Source: Rubrobacter sp. (GTDB lineage Bacteria; Actinomycetota; Rubrobacteria; Rubrobacterales; Rubrobacteraceae). Taken from it: a stretch of 11,637 nt of DNA. Position 1 is the first letter of the stretch; every line of letters begins with the position of its first letter. The notes beneath the pieces were generated by a model. That model was given only the letters and a program-made list of their open reading frames with translations. It did not search any database and was not told the origin of the DNA. The stretch covers positions 1 to 11,637 of the forward strand of contig JADDPY010000211.1 of assembly GCA_016781635.1 (NCBI GenBank), written 5' to 3'. A program made the translations under genes and the position numbers. Shown one piece after another: positions 4,974-11,637 of the stretch.

Positions 4974-5170
4974 GCGTCGCGCGTCCGCGTACCTATGGGT
5001 GAGTGGCGTTGAGAGGCTCGTTGCGCCCTTTTTATGGCTGTGTTAACTTGCGCCAAGCTCTGCTCCAGAAGCAGCTCATTGGAAGCCCGGCCGGGGGTGG
5101 GCCCAAAGAACGGAGGAGTAGAATCTTTTACCGCGGTTTTGATGGGTCTTCTCGGGGCCGCATTTCTCTT

Positions 5171-6151
5171 ATGTCGTGCTCCCTGGTAGTCGTGGCTACC
5201 CTTCTGTTCGCCGGGTGCGGTGGCGGCGACGAGATAAGCGAAGCGACCGTCGCTGCCCCGCCTCCGGGCGGTACGACGGGCGGTGCGGCCGTAGCCCCGC
5301 CCGGGGGCAACGCCGCAGGGGGAGGCACCGTCGAGGGGAGCGCGCAAGCCGAGTCCCTCGAGGATCAGCCTTTCACCCTCAACTTGGACCAGCCCGTCCC
5401 GCCGGACTTCCGGGCCGCCTATCAGCGCAAGGCGCTCATAGTGGTGGAGTTTTTCAAAGAAGGGGAGGATCCACTCTACCCGCAGGGGCTCGAGGTGGAC
5501 GACCTCGTCAACAGTGCCCTGTCTGACCTTCAATCCCAGTACCCGGAGGTCGAGTTCTTCACGTACGACGTCTCCGAACCCGGCGAGGCCGAGACGAGCG
5601 AGGAGCTCGAGCAGGGCCAGTACGGCACCCTGGCCGCCCAGTTGGACGTCGGTTTTACGCCTTTCGTAGCCATGCTGGCGCCGACGGGCGAGCAGTACAT
5701 GATCACGAACCTCTACCAGGGCTACGTGGAGCGCGGCGTCCTCGACCAGGCCCTCTTCGACCTGACGAGCGTCAAAGTCGCCAGCAACACCAGCGACACC
5801 GACGTCGAGCTCGAGACGGTAGAACTTACCGAGAGCGGCGGCGGCATCGAGTACTTCACCGTGACGAACATGAGTGACGAAAGGGTCAACCTCAAAGGCT
5901 TCAGCCTACGCGTGGTCGACCCCGAGAGCGGCGAAGTTACAACGGATTCCTCTGGTGTCGAGGTCAACGAAAGGACGCGCGTGGGCTCCGGCAAAAGCGC
6001 CTCGGTCGGGCGCGTCCCCGACGCCGTGGACGCCGACGGGCGCGAGGTCAAGGGGACCTTCGAGGGCGGCGAGAATCTGGAGCTGCAGCCTGGAGACACC
6101 GTCGCCCTCCTCGACGGCGGCGGCGGCGTAGTCGACACCGTGACCGTCTAG
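5171..6151 (+). CDS. Lipoprotein with thioredoxin-like and lamin-tail-like domains
   Basis: A secreted, lipid-anchored protein of 326 residues from the ATG chosen here. The signal ends in a clear lipobox LFAGC (12-16). A flexible Gly/Ala/Pro-rich linker follows (about 17-60). Residues 68-198 look like a thioredoxin fold: strands ALIVVEFF and VEFFTYDV, then a cis-Pro-like GFTPF before a strand. No CxxC is present, so it is not a standard redox enzyme. Residues 212-326 resemble a lamin-tail domain (IEYFTVTNMSDERVNLKGF, then LELQPGDTVALLDGGG), usual for extracellular adhesion or DNA/surface proteins. The start is uncertain: the frame is open back to a GTG at 5003, and from ATG 5171 the signal has no basic residue before its hydrophobic core. 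A TAGAAT -10-like hexamer at 5119-5124 and GGAGGAG at 5112-5118 could serve this gene. The function is not known. Confidence 0.75.
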   Translation: MSCSLVVVATLLFAGCGGGDEISEATVAAPPPGGTTGGAAVAPPGGNAAGGGTVEGSAQAESLEDQPFTLNLDQPVPPDFRAAYQRKALIVVEFFKEGEDPLYPQGLEVDDLVNSALSDLQSQYPEVEFFTYDVSEPGEAETSEELEQGQYGTLAAQLDVGFTPFVAMLAPTGEQYMITNLYQGYVERGVLDQALFDLTSVKVASNTSDTDVELETVELTESGGGIEYFTVTNMSDERVNLKGFSLRVVDPESGEVTTDSSGVEVNERTRVGSGKSASVGRVPDAVDADGREVKGTFEGGENLELQPGDTVALLDGGGGVVDTVTV

Positions 6152-6217: not shown

Positions 6218-7390
6218 ATGACCGATGGCTCCGTATATTTGGATCATGCCGCCACGACCCCTCTGGACCGAAGGGTCCTGGAGGCCATGCTCCCGTACTT
6301 ACAGGGCGCGCTTGCCGGGGGCAACCCCTCTTCGCTGCACGGTCCCGGAGCCGCCGCTCGTGAGGCCGTCGAGGAGGCCCGCGCGTCCGTCGCAGGGCTC
6401 ATCGGAGCATCGCCCCAGGAGATCGTGTTTACCTCCGGCGGCACCGAGGCCGACAACCTCGCCGTCCTCGGCCTCGCCGCGGCGGACCCCGGGAAGAAGC
6501 ACGTTGCCGTCTCGGCCGTGGAGCACGCCGCGGTCCGGGGGGCCGTGGAGCACCTCGAATCGCGCGGGTACGAGGTTACTCGCCTCGGCGTGGACACCGA
6601 CGGTCGCGTCTCGCCCGAGGACCTCGCGGACGCCCTGCGCCCCGACACCGCCCTCGTCGCCGTCATGTGGGCGAACAACGAGGTCGGTACCGTGCAACGC
6701 GTCGCGGAGCTCGCGGGGAGGTGTCGAGAGCGCGGGGTGCCGTTCCACGCCGACGCGGTCCAGGCCGCGGGGAGGCTTCCCGTCGACGTCTCGCGCGTCC
6801 CCGTTTCCACGCTCGCCATCTCATCCCACAAGCTCTACGGTCCGCAGGGCGTGGGTGCGCTGTACGTACGCGGCGGCGTGAAGCTTGCCCCGATCCTTTT
6901 CGGCGGTGGACAGGAGGGGGGCTTTAGGAGCGGCACCGAGAACGTCGCCGGGCTCGTGGGCTTCGGCGCCGCCGCGCGGCATGCCATGGAGGAGATGGAC
7001 GACCGTATACGCCACGAGGAGGGGCTCCGGGAGACCCTTGCCTCCGGCGCTCTCCGGCTCCCCGGGGTGCGCCTCAACGGGCACCGCAACGAGCGCCTTT
7101 CTAACAACGTTCACCTCTCCGTCGACGGCGTCGAGGCCGAGAGCCTCGTCCTGTTTCTGGATGCCATGGGCTACGCCGTCGGGAGCGGCTCGGCGTGCGC
7201 GTCGAGCACGGCCGGACACAAGGCCTCACCGGTGCTGCTCGCGATGGGCCGTGGGGAGGACGAGGCGTTCAACGCCGTCAGGATCTCTGTCGGCAAGGAC
7301 ACTACGCGGGAGGAGGTCGAGGGGTTCCTCGGCGCCTTCTCCACGGCCGTCTCGCGGCTGCGCGAGCTTTCCCCACTGTACATACACTAG
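6218..7390 (+). CDS. iscS: Cysteine desulfurase (IscS/NifS family)
   Basis: A PLP enzyme that takes sulfur from cysteine, forms a persulfide on its own cysteine and passes it to Fe-S scaffolds or to tRNA thiolases, releasing alanine. The 390 residues are normal for IscS/NifS. Visible are LDHAATTP (8-15), SGGTEADN (73-80), the PLP-stacking His103, HADAVQAAG (177-185) with Asp178 and Gln182, the PLP-binding Lys205 in SSHKLYGP, and the persulfide Cys327 in GSGSACASSTAGHKAS (322-337). The fused NifU-MnmA gene follows after 17 nt in the same direction, so this desulfurase is the likely sulfur donor to both halves of that protein. The start is the ATG at 6218, seven bases after a -10 hexamer and without a Shine-Dalgarno. 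This is the group I (IscS-like) type rather than SufS, judged by the active-site loop. Confidence 0.96.
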   Translation: MTDGSVYLDHAATTPLDRRVLEAMLPYLQGALAGGNPSSLHGPGAAAREAVEEARASVAGLIGASPQEIVFTSGGTEADNLAVLGLAAADPGKKHVAVSAVEHAAVRGAVEHLESRGYEVTRLGVDTDGRVSPEDLADALRPDTALVAVMWANNEVGTVQRVAELAGRCRERGVPFHADAVQAAGRLPVDVSRVPVSTLAISSHKLYGPQGVGALYVRGGVKLAPILFGGGQEGGFRSGTENVAGLVGFGAAARHAMEEMDDRIRHEEGLRETLASGALRLPGVRLNGHRNERLSNNVHLSVDGVEAESLVLFLDAMGYAVGSGSACASSTAGHKASPVLLAMGRGEDEAFNAVRISVGKDTTREEVEGFLGAFSTAVSRLRELSPLYIH

Positions 7391-7407: not shown

Positions 7408-8886
7408 ATGGCTGATCGCTATAACCCGCAGGTAATAGACCACCTCGTCCGGCCCCGGAACGTCGGCGAGCTCGAAAACGCGAGCGGTACCGGCGAATCC
7501 GGCGACGCCTCCTGCGGCGACGTCGCAAGGTTCACCGTTCGTATACAGGACAATCGCCTGGAAGAGGTTCGCTACAAGGTCTACGGCTGCGCCGCGTGCA
7601 TCGCGGCGGGCTCGGCCCTCTCGGAACTTGCCGGGGGCGGGAGCCTGCTGGACGCCGCGCGCGTCTCCAAGAGCGACCTGGAAGAGGCCCTCGGCGGGCC
7701 GCTGCCGTCCGGCAAGGAGCACGCCCTCACGCTCGTCCTCGACGCGCTGCACAAGGCGATCGAGGACCACTGGAACAAGCAGGCGGGCGAGATGCTCGTT
7801 GAGGGGTACGGCGGCCTGCGGATGGGGGCGAGCGGTGAGAAGACCGTCGTCGTGGCGACTAGCGGCGGGGTCGACTCGGCGGTGACGGCACTTCTGATGA
7901 AGGAGGCCGGATACGACGTCGCGTGCGTCACCTTCCGCCTCCACGACGGCGAGCGGGGTAGCCGCTCGTGCTGCTCGCCCGACACCGTTCTGTTCGCGAG
8001 GGACACCGCCCACCGGATGGGATTGCCGCATTTCACCCTGAACCTCAAGGAGCTCTTCGACCGGCGCGTGATGAAGGACTTCGTCGGCTCGTACGCCGAG
8101 GGAAATACCCCCAACCCTTGCGTCTCCTGCAACGCCCACGTCAAGTTCCACGCCGCCTCATTTCTCGCCGACAAGCTCGGCTTCGAGCACGTCGCTACGG
8201 GGCATTACGCTCGCGTCGTGGAGGGGCCCGACGGGGCCGGGGCCACGATGGCGCGGCCCGTCGACGAGACCAAGGATCAAACCTACGTCTTGTGGCCCGT
8301 CCCGAAGGAGCTTCTTGCCCGCACGGTCTTCCCGCTCGGCGACTACCGCAAGGAGGAGGTCCGCCGGATCGCCGAGGACAGGGGGCTCGCCGTCGCCTAT
8401 ACCCCCGAGAGTCAGGACATCTGCTTTATCCCGGACGGCAACTACCGGGGCTTCGTTCGCAAAAAGGTAGCGGCGGAGCCGGGTGAAATTGTGGACCGCG
8501 GGGGCCGCGCCGTCGGTAGGCACAAGGGCGTCGTCGACTTCACCGTCGGCCAGCGCCGTGGTATCGGCATCGCCGCCCCGACCCCGCTCTACGTCACCGA
8601 GGTGCGCCCGAAGACGGGGCAGATCGTGGTCGGCAAGAAGGCCGACCTCGAAACGCGAGAGGTTCGCGTGGGCGGGTTGAACTGGTTTCTCTCGCCCGAG
8701 ACCGCCGGGTCCGTCCAGATCCGCTACAACGGAAGCCCCGTGGCGTGCGAGATCGAGCACGTGGACGGCGGCGAGGTCGTCGCCCGCCTCACCGCGCCGG
8801 TCTTCGGGGTAGCCCCCGGCCAGTCCGCGGTCTTTTACGATGGTGAGAAGGTAGTGGGGGGCGGCGTGGTGCGGCGGAACACCTAG
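7408..8886 (+). CDS. mnmA: Fusion of NifU/IscU-like Fe-S scaffold with tRNA-specific 2-thiouridylase MnmA
   Basis: One uninterrupted 492-residue frame holds two enzymes. Residues 1-125 are a NifU/IscU scaffold: YNPQVIDHLVRPRNVGEL (5-22), Cys36-Gly-Asp38, YGCAACIAAGSALSELAGG (59-77) with Cys61 and Cys64, and SGKEHALTL (101-109). His105 is kept, but Ala106 replaces the third ligand Cys of IscU. After a linker (about 126-142), residues 143-492 are MnmA, which activates U34 of Glu, Gln and Lys tRNAs with ATP and inserts sulfur. Visible are the PP-loop SGGVDS (152-157), TPNPCVSCNAHVKF (234-247) with catalytic Cys241, ATGHYARV (263-270) and ESQDICFIPDGNYRGFV (334-350) with second catalytic Cys339. 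Cys238 adds a C-x-x-C to this pair. MnmA alone is usually about 360 residues, so the N-terminal domain is an addition, not a misread start. The gene lies 17 nt behind iscS, and GAAGG (7393-7397) may serve as a weak ribosome binding site. Confidence 0.95.
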   Translation: MADRYNPQVIDHLVRPRNVGELENASGTGESGDASCGDVARFTVRIQDNRLEEVRYKVYGCAACIAAGSALSELAGGGSLLDAARVSKSDLEEALGGPLPSGKEHALTLVLDALHKAIEDHWNKQAGEMLVEGYGGLRMGASGEKTVVVATSGGVDSAVTALLMKEAGYDVACVTFRLHDGERGSRSCCSPDTVLFARDTAHRMGLPHFTLNLKELFDRRVMKDFVGSYAEGNTPNPCVSCNAHVKFHAASFLADKLGFEHVATGHYARVVEGPDGAGATMARPVDETKDQTYVLWPVPKELLARTVFPLGDYRKEEVRRIAEDRGLAVAYTPESQDICFIPDGNYRGFVRKKVAAEPGEIVDRGGRAVGRHKGVVDFTVGQRRGIGIAAPTPLYVTEVRPKTGQIVVGKKADLETREVRVGGLNWFLSPETAGSVQIRYNGSPVACEIEHVDGGEVVARLTAPVFGVAPGQSAVFYDGEKVVGGGVVRRNT

Positions 8887-9800: not shown

Positions 9801-10082
9801 TTGAGCGACGCTACCGACTATACGTATCTGACGTTACCGCCTGGAGAACCCGTGCGTTCCTGCATAGGTCTCGTGGTCGCCGGGATGGCGGCTCGCGGCA
9901 AGATCGGGGTCGGTGGTTTGGAGGAGGCCGTGGAGCTTCTCGAGGACCGCCACTCCGACGAGTCCCTGACTCGCTACCGTTTCTCGCTCGTGGAGGACCG
10001 TCTGCTCGCGCAGGTCGAGGAGCAGCGCAATGCCACGGACGATGGTGCCGGCTGGCGGACCGTGGTAGAGCTGGTTTCGTGA
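9801..10082 (+). CDS. Unknown 93-residue protein coupled to the sigma factor
   Basis: A small soluble protein with a TTG start and a strong ribosome binding site. Its last codons overlap the sigma-factor start by 4 nt (GTGA), so the two are translationally coupled. This is where rsbW, the anti-sigma kinase, usually sits in SigB/SigF operons. I cannot assign it to a family. A predicted order of strand (8-12), helix (17-33), helix (38-50), strand (58-65), strand (67-74) and strand (85-92) resembles the N-terminal half of a GHKL ATPase such as RsbW/SpoIIAB. The N-box Asn and His and the glycine-rich ATP-lid motifs are absent, so it cannot be an ordinary kinase. A degenerate anti-sigma factor or a regulator of the sigma factor is the best guess from position; an unrelated function is possible. 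Confidence 0.7.
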   Translation: MSDATDYTYLTLPPGEPVRSCIGLVVAGMAARGKIGVGGLEEAVELLEDRHSDESLTRYRFSLVEDRLLAQVEEQRNATDDGAGWRTVVELVS

Positions 10083-10912
10083 CGACCGGGAGGCGCTACA
10101 GGCGTCCGGACAAGGCCCGCACCCGCAGGCTCCTCACCCGCTACCACAAGCATGGGGATCAACGGGCGCGCGAGCTCGCTATTCAGGAGCAACTCCCGCT
10201 CGTGGAGTTTCTCGCCCGTAAGTTCGCCGGGCGCGGCGAGCCCGTCGAGGACCTCGTGCAGGTCGCCTCGGTCGGCCTCATCAAGGCGGTGGACCGCTTC
10301 GACGTCGATAGAAACATCGAGTTCTCAACCTACGCCACCCCGAACATCCTTGGGGAGATCAAGCGTTACTTCCGCGACAAGGGTTGGGCGATGCGCGTCC
10401 CCCGTGGCCTCCAGGAGCTCAGGCAGTCGGCGAAAGAGGCGATCCGCGACGGCACCGTAAAAACGGGCCGCTCCCCGACGATCCTCGAGCTCGCCGAAAG
10501 GCTCGACTCCGACGTCGAGAGCGTCGCCGAAGCCCTCACGCTCGGGCGTGCCTACAACACGGCCAGCCTCGACGCACCGGTGAGCCAGGACGACTCCGAC
10601 GGCGACACCATCATGGACCTTCAGGCCGATGAAAACTCCCCCATAGAAGGGTTGGAGGATAAGATCCTCCTGCAAAAAGCCATTGAAACTTTAAAAGGTC
10701 AGCAGCAGCGCATCCTCAAACTCCGCTTCAACGAAGGCAAGACCCAGACCGAGATCGCCGAGACCATAGGCGTAAGCCAGATGCACGTCTCTCGGCTCCT
10801 GCGTCGTGCCCTCGACGACCTGCGCCGCCAGCTCGACGATATCAGTGGGGAAGAGGACGACGGGCAGACGGGCGGGCAGTCCGAAAGCGCGCGGGCAGGG
10901 ACCGGAATTTAG
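10079..10912 (+). CDS. SigB/SigF-type alternative RNA polymerase sigma factor
   Basis: A 277-residue group 3 sigma factor that directs RNA polymerase to stress-type promoters. Region 2 is clear: EPVEDLVQVASVGLIKAV (54-71), FDVDRNIEFSTYATPNILGE (74-93) and RYFRDKGWAMRVPRGLQEL (96-114), which is the signature of the SigB/SigF/SigG group. Region 3 covers about 115-190. Region 4 has a helix-turn-helix, QTEIAETIGVSQMHVSRLLR (223-242). The tail after about 252 is acidic and Gly/Ser-rich, probably disordered. The GTG start overlaps the stop of the 93-residue gene by 4 nt. No GTTT-GGGTA type (SigB-like) promoter was found upstream, so autoregulation is not evident. No rsbV or rsbW gene is visible within the window. 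Symbol not assigned because SigB and SigF cannot be told apart here. Confidence 0.93.
   Translation: MTTGRRYRRPDKARTRRLLTRYHKHGDQRARELAIQEQLPLVEFLARKFAGRGEPVEDLVQVASVGLIKAVDRFDVDRNIEFSTYATPNILGEIKRYFRDKGWAMRVPRGLQELRQSAKEAIRDGTVKTGRSPTILELAERLDSDVESVAEALTLGRAYNTASLDAPVSQDDSDGDTIMDLQADENSPIEGLEDKILLQKAIETLKGQQQRILKLRFNEGKTQTEIAETIGVSQMHVSRLLRRALDDLRRQLDDISGEEDDGQTGGQSESARAGTGI

Positions 10913-10984: not shown

Positions 10985-11637
<653 letters not shown>

What the first reader, a model, noticed from the sequence alone, without database searches (positions are those of the whole stretch)
7408..8886. NifU/IscU scaffold fused to tRNA thiolase MnmA, directly behind iscS
A single open frame without interruption joins an Fe-S scaffold domain (1-125) to complete MnmA (143-492), 17 nt after a cysteine desulfurase. 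MnmA normally takes sulfur from IscS, directly or through Tus relay proteins, and is not known as a scaffold partner in the well-studied models. The fusion suggests on-site delivery of a cluster or persulfide to the thiolase. I recall, without being able to verify, that NifU/MnmA fusions have been annotated in Rubrobacter, so the architecture may be known while its chemistry is not.
Basis: partly seen in the sequence, partly recalled or inferred. Interest (0 to 1): 0.75.

Follow-up and report, generated by a model that had tools for sequence, protein, structure and literature searches.

The report
Ex-scaffold protein welded to tRNA thiolase
In Rubrobacter-type bacteria the enzyme that puts sulfur on tRNA carries, in one protein, a former iron-sulfur-cluster workbench that has lost part of its cluster-holding site, which suggests that it now hands over plain sulfur rather than clusters.

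Summary
In detail: 7408-8886 (+) encodes one 492-aa protein, an IscU/NifU_N domain (5-125) plus complete C-type MnmA (145-488), 17 nt behind an IscS gene. It is no artefact: 26 of 39 family genomes carry it uninterrupted, and fused genes occur in ten further families of the phylum. What is new lies in the ligands. MnmA's own cluster ligands are kept in 93 of 93 rows. Of the scaffold's three ligand cysteines, 75 fused domains keep C37 in 69, C63 in 65, but C106 in only 10; nine keep all three, none keeps these plus D39 and H105. Separate nifU genes near mnmA outside this family keep all five in 21 of 21; five separate ones inside it lack C106. Here the remaining site is invariant and under purifying selection; SUF is present, TusE not found in 9 genomes. 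Best reading: a repurposed scaffold that docks IscS and relays persulfide to MnmA, not an on-site cluster builder. The relay is inferred; docking only, or a rewired C36/C61/C64 cluster site, is not excluded.

The parts
6218..7390 (+). iscS, cysteine desulfurase of IscS/NifS class (390 aa, loop Cys327)
   Evidence: PF00266 271 bits; IscS/NifS models 356-436 bits, below the equivalog cut-offs; Cys positions 169 and 327; iscS directly upstream in 33 of 33 family loci that hold upstream sequence
7408..8886 (+). nifU-mnmA fusion gene (492 aa)
7420..7782 (+). IscU/NifU_N-like domain, residues 5-125; kept site C36, D38, C61, H105; extra C64; A106 in place of the third ligand Cys
7513..7521 (+). C36-G-D38 (IscU C37/D39); C36 is the putative persulfide acceptor
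   Evidence: C36 and D38 154 of 154 in close homologues
7588..7599 (+). C61-x-x-C64: C61 = IscU C63; C64 is a family-specific extra Cys
   Evidence: C61 154/154, C64 151/154; no Cys at this place in 49 fused rows of other families
7714..7725 (+). K103-E-H105-A106: IscS-contact Lys and His kept, ligand C106 replaced by Ala
   Evidence: K103 and H105 154/154; position 106 Ala 151, Gly 3, Cys 0 of 154
7783..7839 (+). variable linker, residues 126-144
   Evidence: no invariant column, mean entropy 1.64 bits against 0.74 and 0.56 in the two domains
7840..8871 (+). complete C-type MnmA, residues 145-488; C188, C189, C238, C241, C339
   Evidence: C238/C241/C339 in 93 of 93 rows, the CC pair in 88 of 93

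Best explanation
The locus is a compact tRNA 2-thiouridine-34 factory of two genes: iscS, and a protein in which MnmA carries an IscU-derived arm. The arm is a former [2Fe-2S] scaffold. In this family it lost the third ligand Cys (C106) and with it, most likely, the ability to assemble a normal cluster. It keeps the IscS-binding Lys (K103) and the exposed acceptor Cys (C36) with D38, C61 and H105, a set that can hold zinc. It docks IscS, takes the persulfide sulfur on C36 (possibly passing it along C61/C64) and hands it to the MnmA active site, whose own [4Fe-4S] cluster (C238, C241, C339) is supplied by the SUF system. Shown: the fusion, its conservation, ligand loss in the arm, ligand conservation in MnmA, the iscS neighbour, no TusE found, presence of SufB/SufD. 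Inferred: zinc rather than Fe-S in the arm, IscS docking, direction and route of sulfur, origin of MnmA's cluster.
For: In 75 fused domains (11 families) C37 is kept in 69, C63 65, D39 56, H105 49, C106 10; all five in 0. Separate nifU genes next to or near mnmA outside this family keep all five in 21 of 21. Close homologues: C36, D38, C61, K103, H105 each 154/154, C106 0/154; dN below dS in the arm (0.033/0.31 to 0.191/1.10 in four comparisons). MnmA cluster triad 93/93. iscS directly upstream in 33/33 family loci with upstream sequence. DsrC/TusE 0 of 9 and TusA 2 of 9 genomes; SufB/SufD core 9 of 9; the same genome has a SufU with an intact C-D-C-C set. Literature passages: Cys37 proposed as first sulfur acceptor, K103E abolishes IscS binding (PMC2854127); in one modelled protonation state zinc sits on Cys37/Asp39/Cys63/His105 without Cys106 (PMC4243993); M. 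tuberculosis SufU, same fold, is a zinc sulfurtransferase through the matching Cys (PMC10216065).
Against: No biochemistry. Nine fused rows of f49, f27, f57 and f68 keep all three ligand Cys and D39 and lack only H105, and Asp/His are said to be replaceable in IscU (PMC4243993), so cluster binding is not excluded there. In f24 all five residues are gone, and C37 is also missing in 3 of 9 f5 and 1 of 2 f68 rows, so a C37 relay cannot be the rule everywhere. Outside the family only 1 of 49 fused genes has iscS in the fetched stretch (some stretches hold under 1 kb upstream). C64 could replace C106 as a ligand in this family. K103 is K or R in only 58 of 75. In other modelled states Cys106 does bind zinc; more than one IscU Cys can accept sulfur, and for E. 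faecalis SufU the third Cys was proposed as acceptor. B. subtilis needs no relay (passage, PMC5372745), so docking alone would do.
Confidence: 0.5

Rival explanations
1. Docking arm only: the ex-scaffold tethers IscS (or another desulfurase) so that its loop Cys passes persulfide straight to MnmA, as YrvO does in B. subtilis; no Cys of the arm carries sulfur.
For: Families that lost most or all Cys of the arm still keep the domain (f21, f24); K103 invariant in 154 close homologues; direct YrvO-MnmA transfer described in PMC5372745 (passage).
Against: C36, D38, C61 and H105 are invariant in 154 of 154 close homologues, which docking alone does not require; K103 is lost in most f21 and f29 rows.
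Confidence: 0.25
2. On-site cluster assembly with a rewired site: in this family C64 replaces C106, so C36/C61/C64 plus D38 or H105 still hold a nascent cluster that is passed to MnmA C238/C241/C339.
For: C64 kept in 151 of 154; three Cys remain; nine fused rows of other families keep all three original ligand Cys; MnmA is of the CxxC-C type reported to hold [4Fe-4S] in Thermus (passage in PMC8584467).
Against: C64 is absent in 49 of 49 fused rows of other families and is Ser or Thr in 3 of 31 rows of this family (L016, L037, L021); 66 of 75 fused rows lack at least one of the three ligand Cys; SUF is available for clusters.
Confidence: 0.15
3. The arm is a structural or tRNA-contact module of MnmA with no role in sulfur traffic.
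For: The arm persists in f24 without any of the five residues; pTM 0.90 suggests a fixed position on MnmA.
Against: Invariant metal/thiol site and iscS neighbour in this family; as separate genes the pair sits behind iscS; six family genomes do without the covalent link.
Confidence: 0.1

Closest known systems
IscU / NifU N-terminal scaffold
   Different: Third ligand C106 replaced by Ala; fused to MnmA; extra C64; no IscU/NifU equivalog model reaches its cut-off
C-type (CxxC-C) MnmA, e.g. Thermus
   Same: PP-loop domain, CxxC-C triad and CC pair, all three MnmA Pfam domains
   Different: Carries an N-terminal IscU-like domain
YrvO-MnmA pair of Bacillus subtilis
   Same: IscS-type desulfurase gene directly upstream of mnmA, no TusE found (for the literature; here)
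   Different: An IscU-derived domain is added to MnmA
SufU, zinc-dependent sulfurtransferase
   Same: Same superfamily; works as persulfide acceptor through the Cys that matches C36, with zinc (passages)
   Different: The SufU of this genome keeps the third Cys near its end; SufU partners SufS and is not fused; the arm is closer in sequence to IscU than to SufU
Separate iscS-nifU-mnmA genes (Clostridia, Dehalococcoidia and others)
   Same: Same three functions in the same order
   Different: Separate genes; scaffold residues complete in 21 of 21 outside this family

Membership tests
tRNA 2-thiouridylase MnmA (C-type) | PP-loop HUP, PRC-barrel and C-terminal barrel domains | tested here: met
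   PF03054, PF20259, PF20258 over cut-off; NF001138 over cut-off
tRNA 2-thiouridylase MnmA (C-type) | CC-CxxC-C cysteines | tested here: met
   C188, C189, C238, C241, C339; over 93 rows triad 93, CC pair 88
tRNA 2-thiouridylase MnmA (C-type) | [4Fe-4S] cluster and s2U34 activity | not testable with these tools
   needs protein
IscU/NifU scaffold | IscU fold and NifU_N sequence | tested here: met
   PF01592 94.5 bits; fold match
IscU/NifU scaffold | three cluster-ligand cysteines C37, C63, C106 | tested here: not met
   A106; Cys at this place in 0 of 154 close homologues; C64 might substitute, untested
IscU/NifU scaffold | binds cysteine desulfurase | not testable with these tools
   only indirect: iscS neighbour, K103 kept
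SufU zinc sulfurtransferase | SufU sequence family and Zn site of three Cys plus Asp | tested here: not met
   SufU model 41.5 bits against cut-off 92.5; third Cys absent
Tus relay | TusE (DsrC) in the genome | tested here: not met
   0 of 9 genomes; of 14 controls only E. coli rings; the window's own genome is 78% complete
YrvO-MnmA type direct pair | IscS-like gene directly upstream of mnmA, no Tus relay | tested here: met
   TusA in 2 of 9 genomes, not in the window's own

The most novel reading that the evidence does not exclude
A third sulfur route to tRNA U34 beside the Tus relay and the direct YrvO type: an Fe-S scaffold turned, by fusion to MnmA, into a built-in persulfide relay (zinc- or thiol-based), with the cluster site given up in different ways in several lineages of Actinomycetota. 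This would separate 'sulfur for the tRNA' from 'cluster for the enzyme' inside one protein and bear on the dispute over how MnmA uses its cluster.
Probability: 0.4. Interest if true: 0.78.

Novelty: new variant of a known kind. Interest (0 to 1): 0.6.

Why it matters
Whether MnmA thiolates through a persulfide or through an extra sulfur on a [4Fe-4S] cluster is unsettled (review PMC11784392, sections 6 and 8 read). Here evolution has tied a likely docking partner of the sulfur donor to the enzyme and, in this family and most others sampled, let the partner's cluster site decay while the enzyme's cluster site stays intact. That is a natural experiment on the question, and the cis arrangement fixes the stoichiometry, so point mutants of the arm can test donor, relay and cluster roles one by one.

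Tried and rejected
Sequencing frameshift or assembly join: rejected. Misread strand: five minus-strand loci (L005, L006, L019, L022, L023) were translated on the wrong strand; these rows were redone. Internal start for a free MnmA: an ATG (M139) lies in the linker, but in the linkers that I read it is not shared by other family members (inspection, whose output was cut), so not pursued. Delivery by a normal scaffold: disfavoured for this family for lack of C106. Dropped before the ligand counts: L035 (falsely called fused; a separate pair), L032 (cut by contig end), L039 (interrupted copy). L048 (MnmA frame interrupted) is in the ligand counts but not in the MnmA rows. K103 retention against iscS adjacency: no clear link. 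One origin of the fusion: not rejected (p-AU 0.0955). The free tree needs three changes of state: the large fused group adjoins f49/f68, f5/f24 stand apart, and a separate Thermoleophilia pair with all five residues (L145, long branch) falls inside the large group, against a simple story; placing it outside is not rejected (p-AU 0.284). Literature: searches for MnmA with NifU, Rubrobacter, IscU/fused, SufU, and NifU with 2-thiouridylase listed no paper on such a fusion by title or abstract start; I saw passages of two of these hits (PMC5372745, PMC4014445), the rest in the listing only. The library holds open-licence papers only. One search found no paper.

Full report
What is there. The frame 7408-8886 (+) reads through without a stop into a 492-aa protein. 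Pfam places NifU_N at 5-125 and the three MnmA domains from 145 to 488. NCBIfam names the second part tRNA 2-thiouridine(34) synthase MnmA well over cut-off; the NifU and IscU equivalog models match the first part but stay under their cut-offs. An IscS/NifS-class desulfurase ends 17 nt upstream. No tRNA or Rfam family at gathering score is in the window. Named close relatives are proteins of Rubrobacter marinus (90%) and R. xylanophilus (68%).

It is real and conserved. In 39 genomes of the window's family (f1) the protein is uninterrupted in 26; one copy is cut by a contig end, six genomes have the parts as separate frames, two show part of MnmA only, and four (60-82% complete) have no NifU-MnmA match. 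iscS lies directly upstream in 33 of 33 loci of this family that hold upstream sequence. In 396 genomes of the phylum, family included, 337 matched at E <= 1e-60 (the match list was cut). From that list I fetched 60 loci outside the family, taken from its upper part and mainly for matches that span both halves, so a biased choice: 49 fused in ten families, 8 with separate nifU and mnmA, 3 mnmA only. I saw no fused gene outside Actinomycetota, but the sample is capped.

The decisive detail. E. coli IscU is thought to hold its cluster on C37, C63 and C106, with D39 and H105 nearby (PMC4243993, passages). In separate nifU genes outside this family all five are present in 21 of 21 (seven f18, one f45, 13 named). 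In 75 fused domains of 11 families (26 of f1, 49 of others) none has all five; C37 is kept in 69, C63 in 65, D39 in 56, H105 in 49, C106 in 10; nine rows (f49 five, f27 two, f57 one, f68 one) keep all three Cys. The seven named fused loci lack C106 in 7 of 7. Losses differ by lineage: f1, f14, f29 and f39 lose C106; f49, two of three f27, f57 and f68 keep C106 but lose H105; f21 keeps only C37; f24 keeps none; f5 is mixed. Five separate f1 genes with this stretch intact also lack C106. A Fisher test on C106, fused outside f1 (10 of 49) against separate (21 of 21), gives 1e-10, but related rows are not independent, so it is only descriptive. In the same loci MnmA's C238/C241/C339 are kept in 93 of 93 rows, fused or not (L048 left out). 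So the enzyme's cluster site is conserved throughout while the scaffold's is not.

The arm is not decaying here. Over 154 listed close homologues (67-100% identical; the 157 proteins held minus the query copy and two distant ones; the list is the best 120 of each of two searches), C36, D38, C61, K103 and H105 are invariant, C64 is kept in 151, and position 106 is Ala in 151 and Gly in 3. In four pairwise comparisons dN is well below dS in the arm, though in three of the four the arm's dN exceeds MnmA's, in one only slightly. The linker has no invariant column.

Genome context. Nine genomes were tested: seven of the family and two of f14 and f39, all with the fusion; the window's own is 78% complete. 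DsrC/TusE is found in 0 of 9 (control: E. coli only of 14) and TusA in 2 of 9 (11 of 14 controls). The SufB/SufD core is in 9 of 9. MnmG is over its cut-off in 0 of 9, with weak sub-threshold matches in 8; 9 of 14 controls pass. The window's genome also holds a SufU with an intact C-D-C-C set and a third NifU_N paralogue that has lost ligands.

How it probably works. In the IscS-IscU crystal structure C37 is the exposed Cys nearest the donor loop and was proposed as first acceptor, C106 is buried, and K103E abolishes binding; the authors also note that more than one Cys can accept sulfur (PMC2854127, passages). In one modelled protonation state zinc on IscU sits on C37, D39, C63 and H105 without C106; in others C106 takes part (PMC4243993). 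SufU of M. tuberculosis, same fold, takes persulfide on the matching Cys with zinc; for E. faecalis SufU the third Cys was proposed instead (PMC10216065, passages). The set kept in this family is C36, D38, C61, H105 and K103. I therefore infer an IscS-docking persulfide relay, with MnmA's [4Fe-4S] supplied by SUF. The chief rivals are docking alone and a rewired C36/C61/C64 cluster site. Families that lost even C37 show that the relay is not universal, and the nine rows with all three Cys may still bind clusters.

History. On a 60-row MnmA tree the fused proteins (with the family's separate pairs counted among them) need three changes of state: the large fused group and f49/f68 adjoin, f5/f24 stand apart, and the separate L145 lies inside the large group. 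One origin is not rejected (p-AU 0.0955). Within the family, fused and separate forms are mixed: five changes on the best tree, two forced by well-supported branches.

Literature. Section 8 of a 2024 review states that no direct evidence decides between persulfide and cluster mechanisms; section 6 sets out the contradictory E. coli results. Thermus CxxC-C MnmA is reported to hold a [4Fe-4S] cluster (PMC8584467 passage). I found no paper on the fusion in the searches named above.

Noticed in passing
G000:C697:101-448 (L041): A third NifU_N paralogue in the same genome has degenerate ligand positions (ECGGS, GQGDTIS, TRNATMG), unlike the intact SufU on C561.
   Followed up: partly
whole genomes: MnmG is over its cut-off in 0 of 9 genomes that carry the fusion (weak matches in 8), so MnmA there may work without the cmnm5 pathway.
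   Followed up: no
window 9801-10912: A small ORF without Pfam match (9801-10082) overlaps a SigB/F/G-type sigma factor gene (10079-10912) by four bases; a possible regulator-sigma pair. An ORF that looks like alaS (recognised by eye) begins at 10985.
   Followed up: no
window 5003-6151: Lipoprotein-like ORF upstream of iscS with a weak, below cut-off Lamin Tail Domain match.
   Followed up: no
L111-L181: iscS-mnmA without nifU (Chloroflexi, Acidimicrobiia) and iscS-nifU-mnmA (Clostridia and others) both occur; what decides between them was not surveyed.
   Followed up: partly
L116:1500-2639: In one Rubrobacter MAG iscS is read in two adjacent frames, likely a frameshift, while the fusion behind it is open.
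   Followed up: no
window residue C447 (8746-8748): A Cys in the C-terminal barrel of MnmA is invariant in 154 of 154 close homologues but Ala in the two distant ones; role unknown.
   Followed up: no
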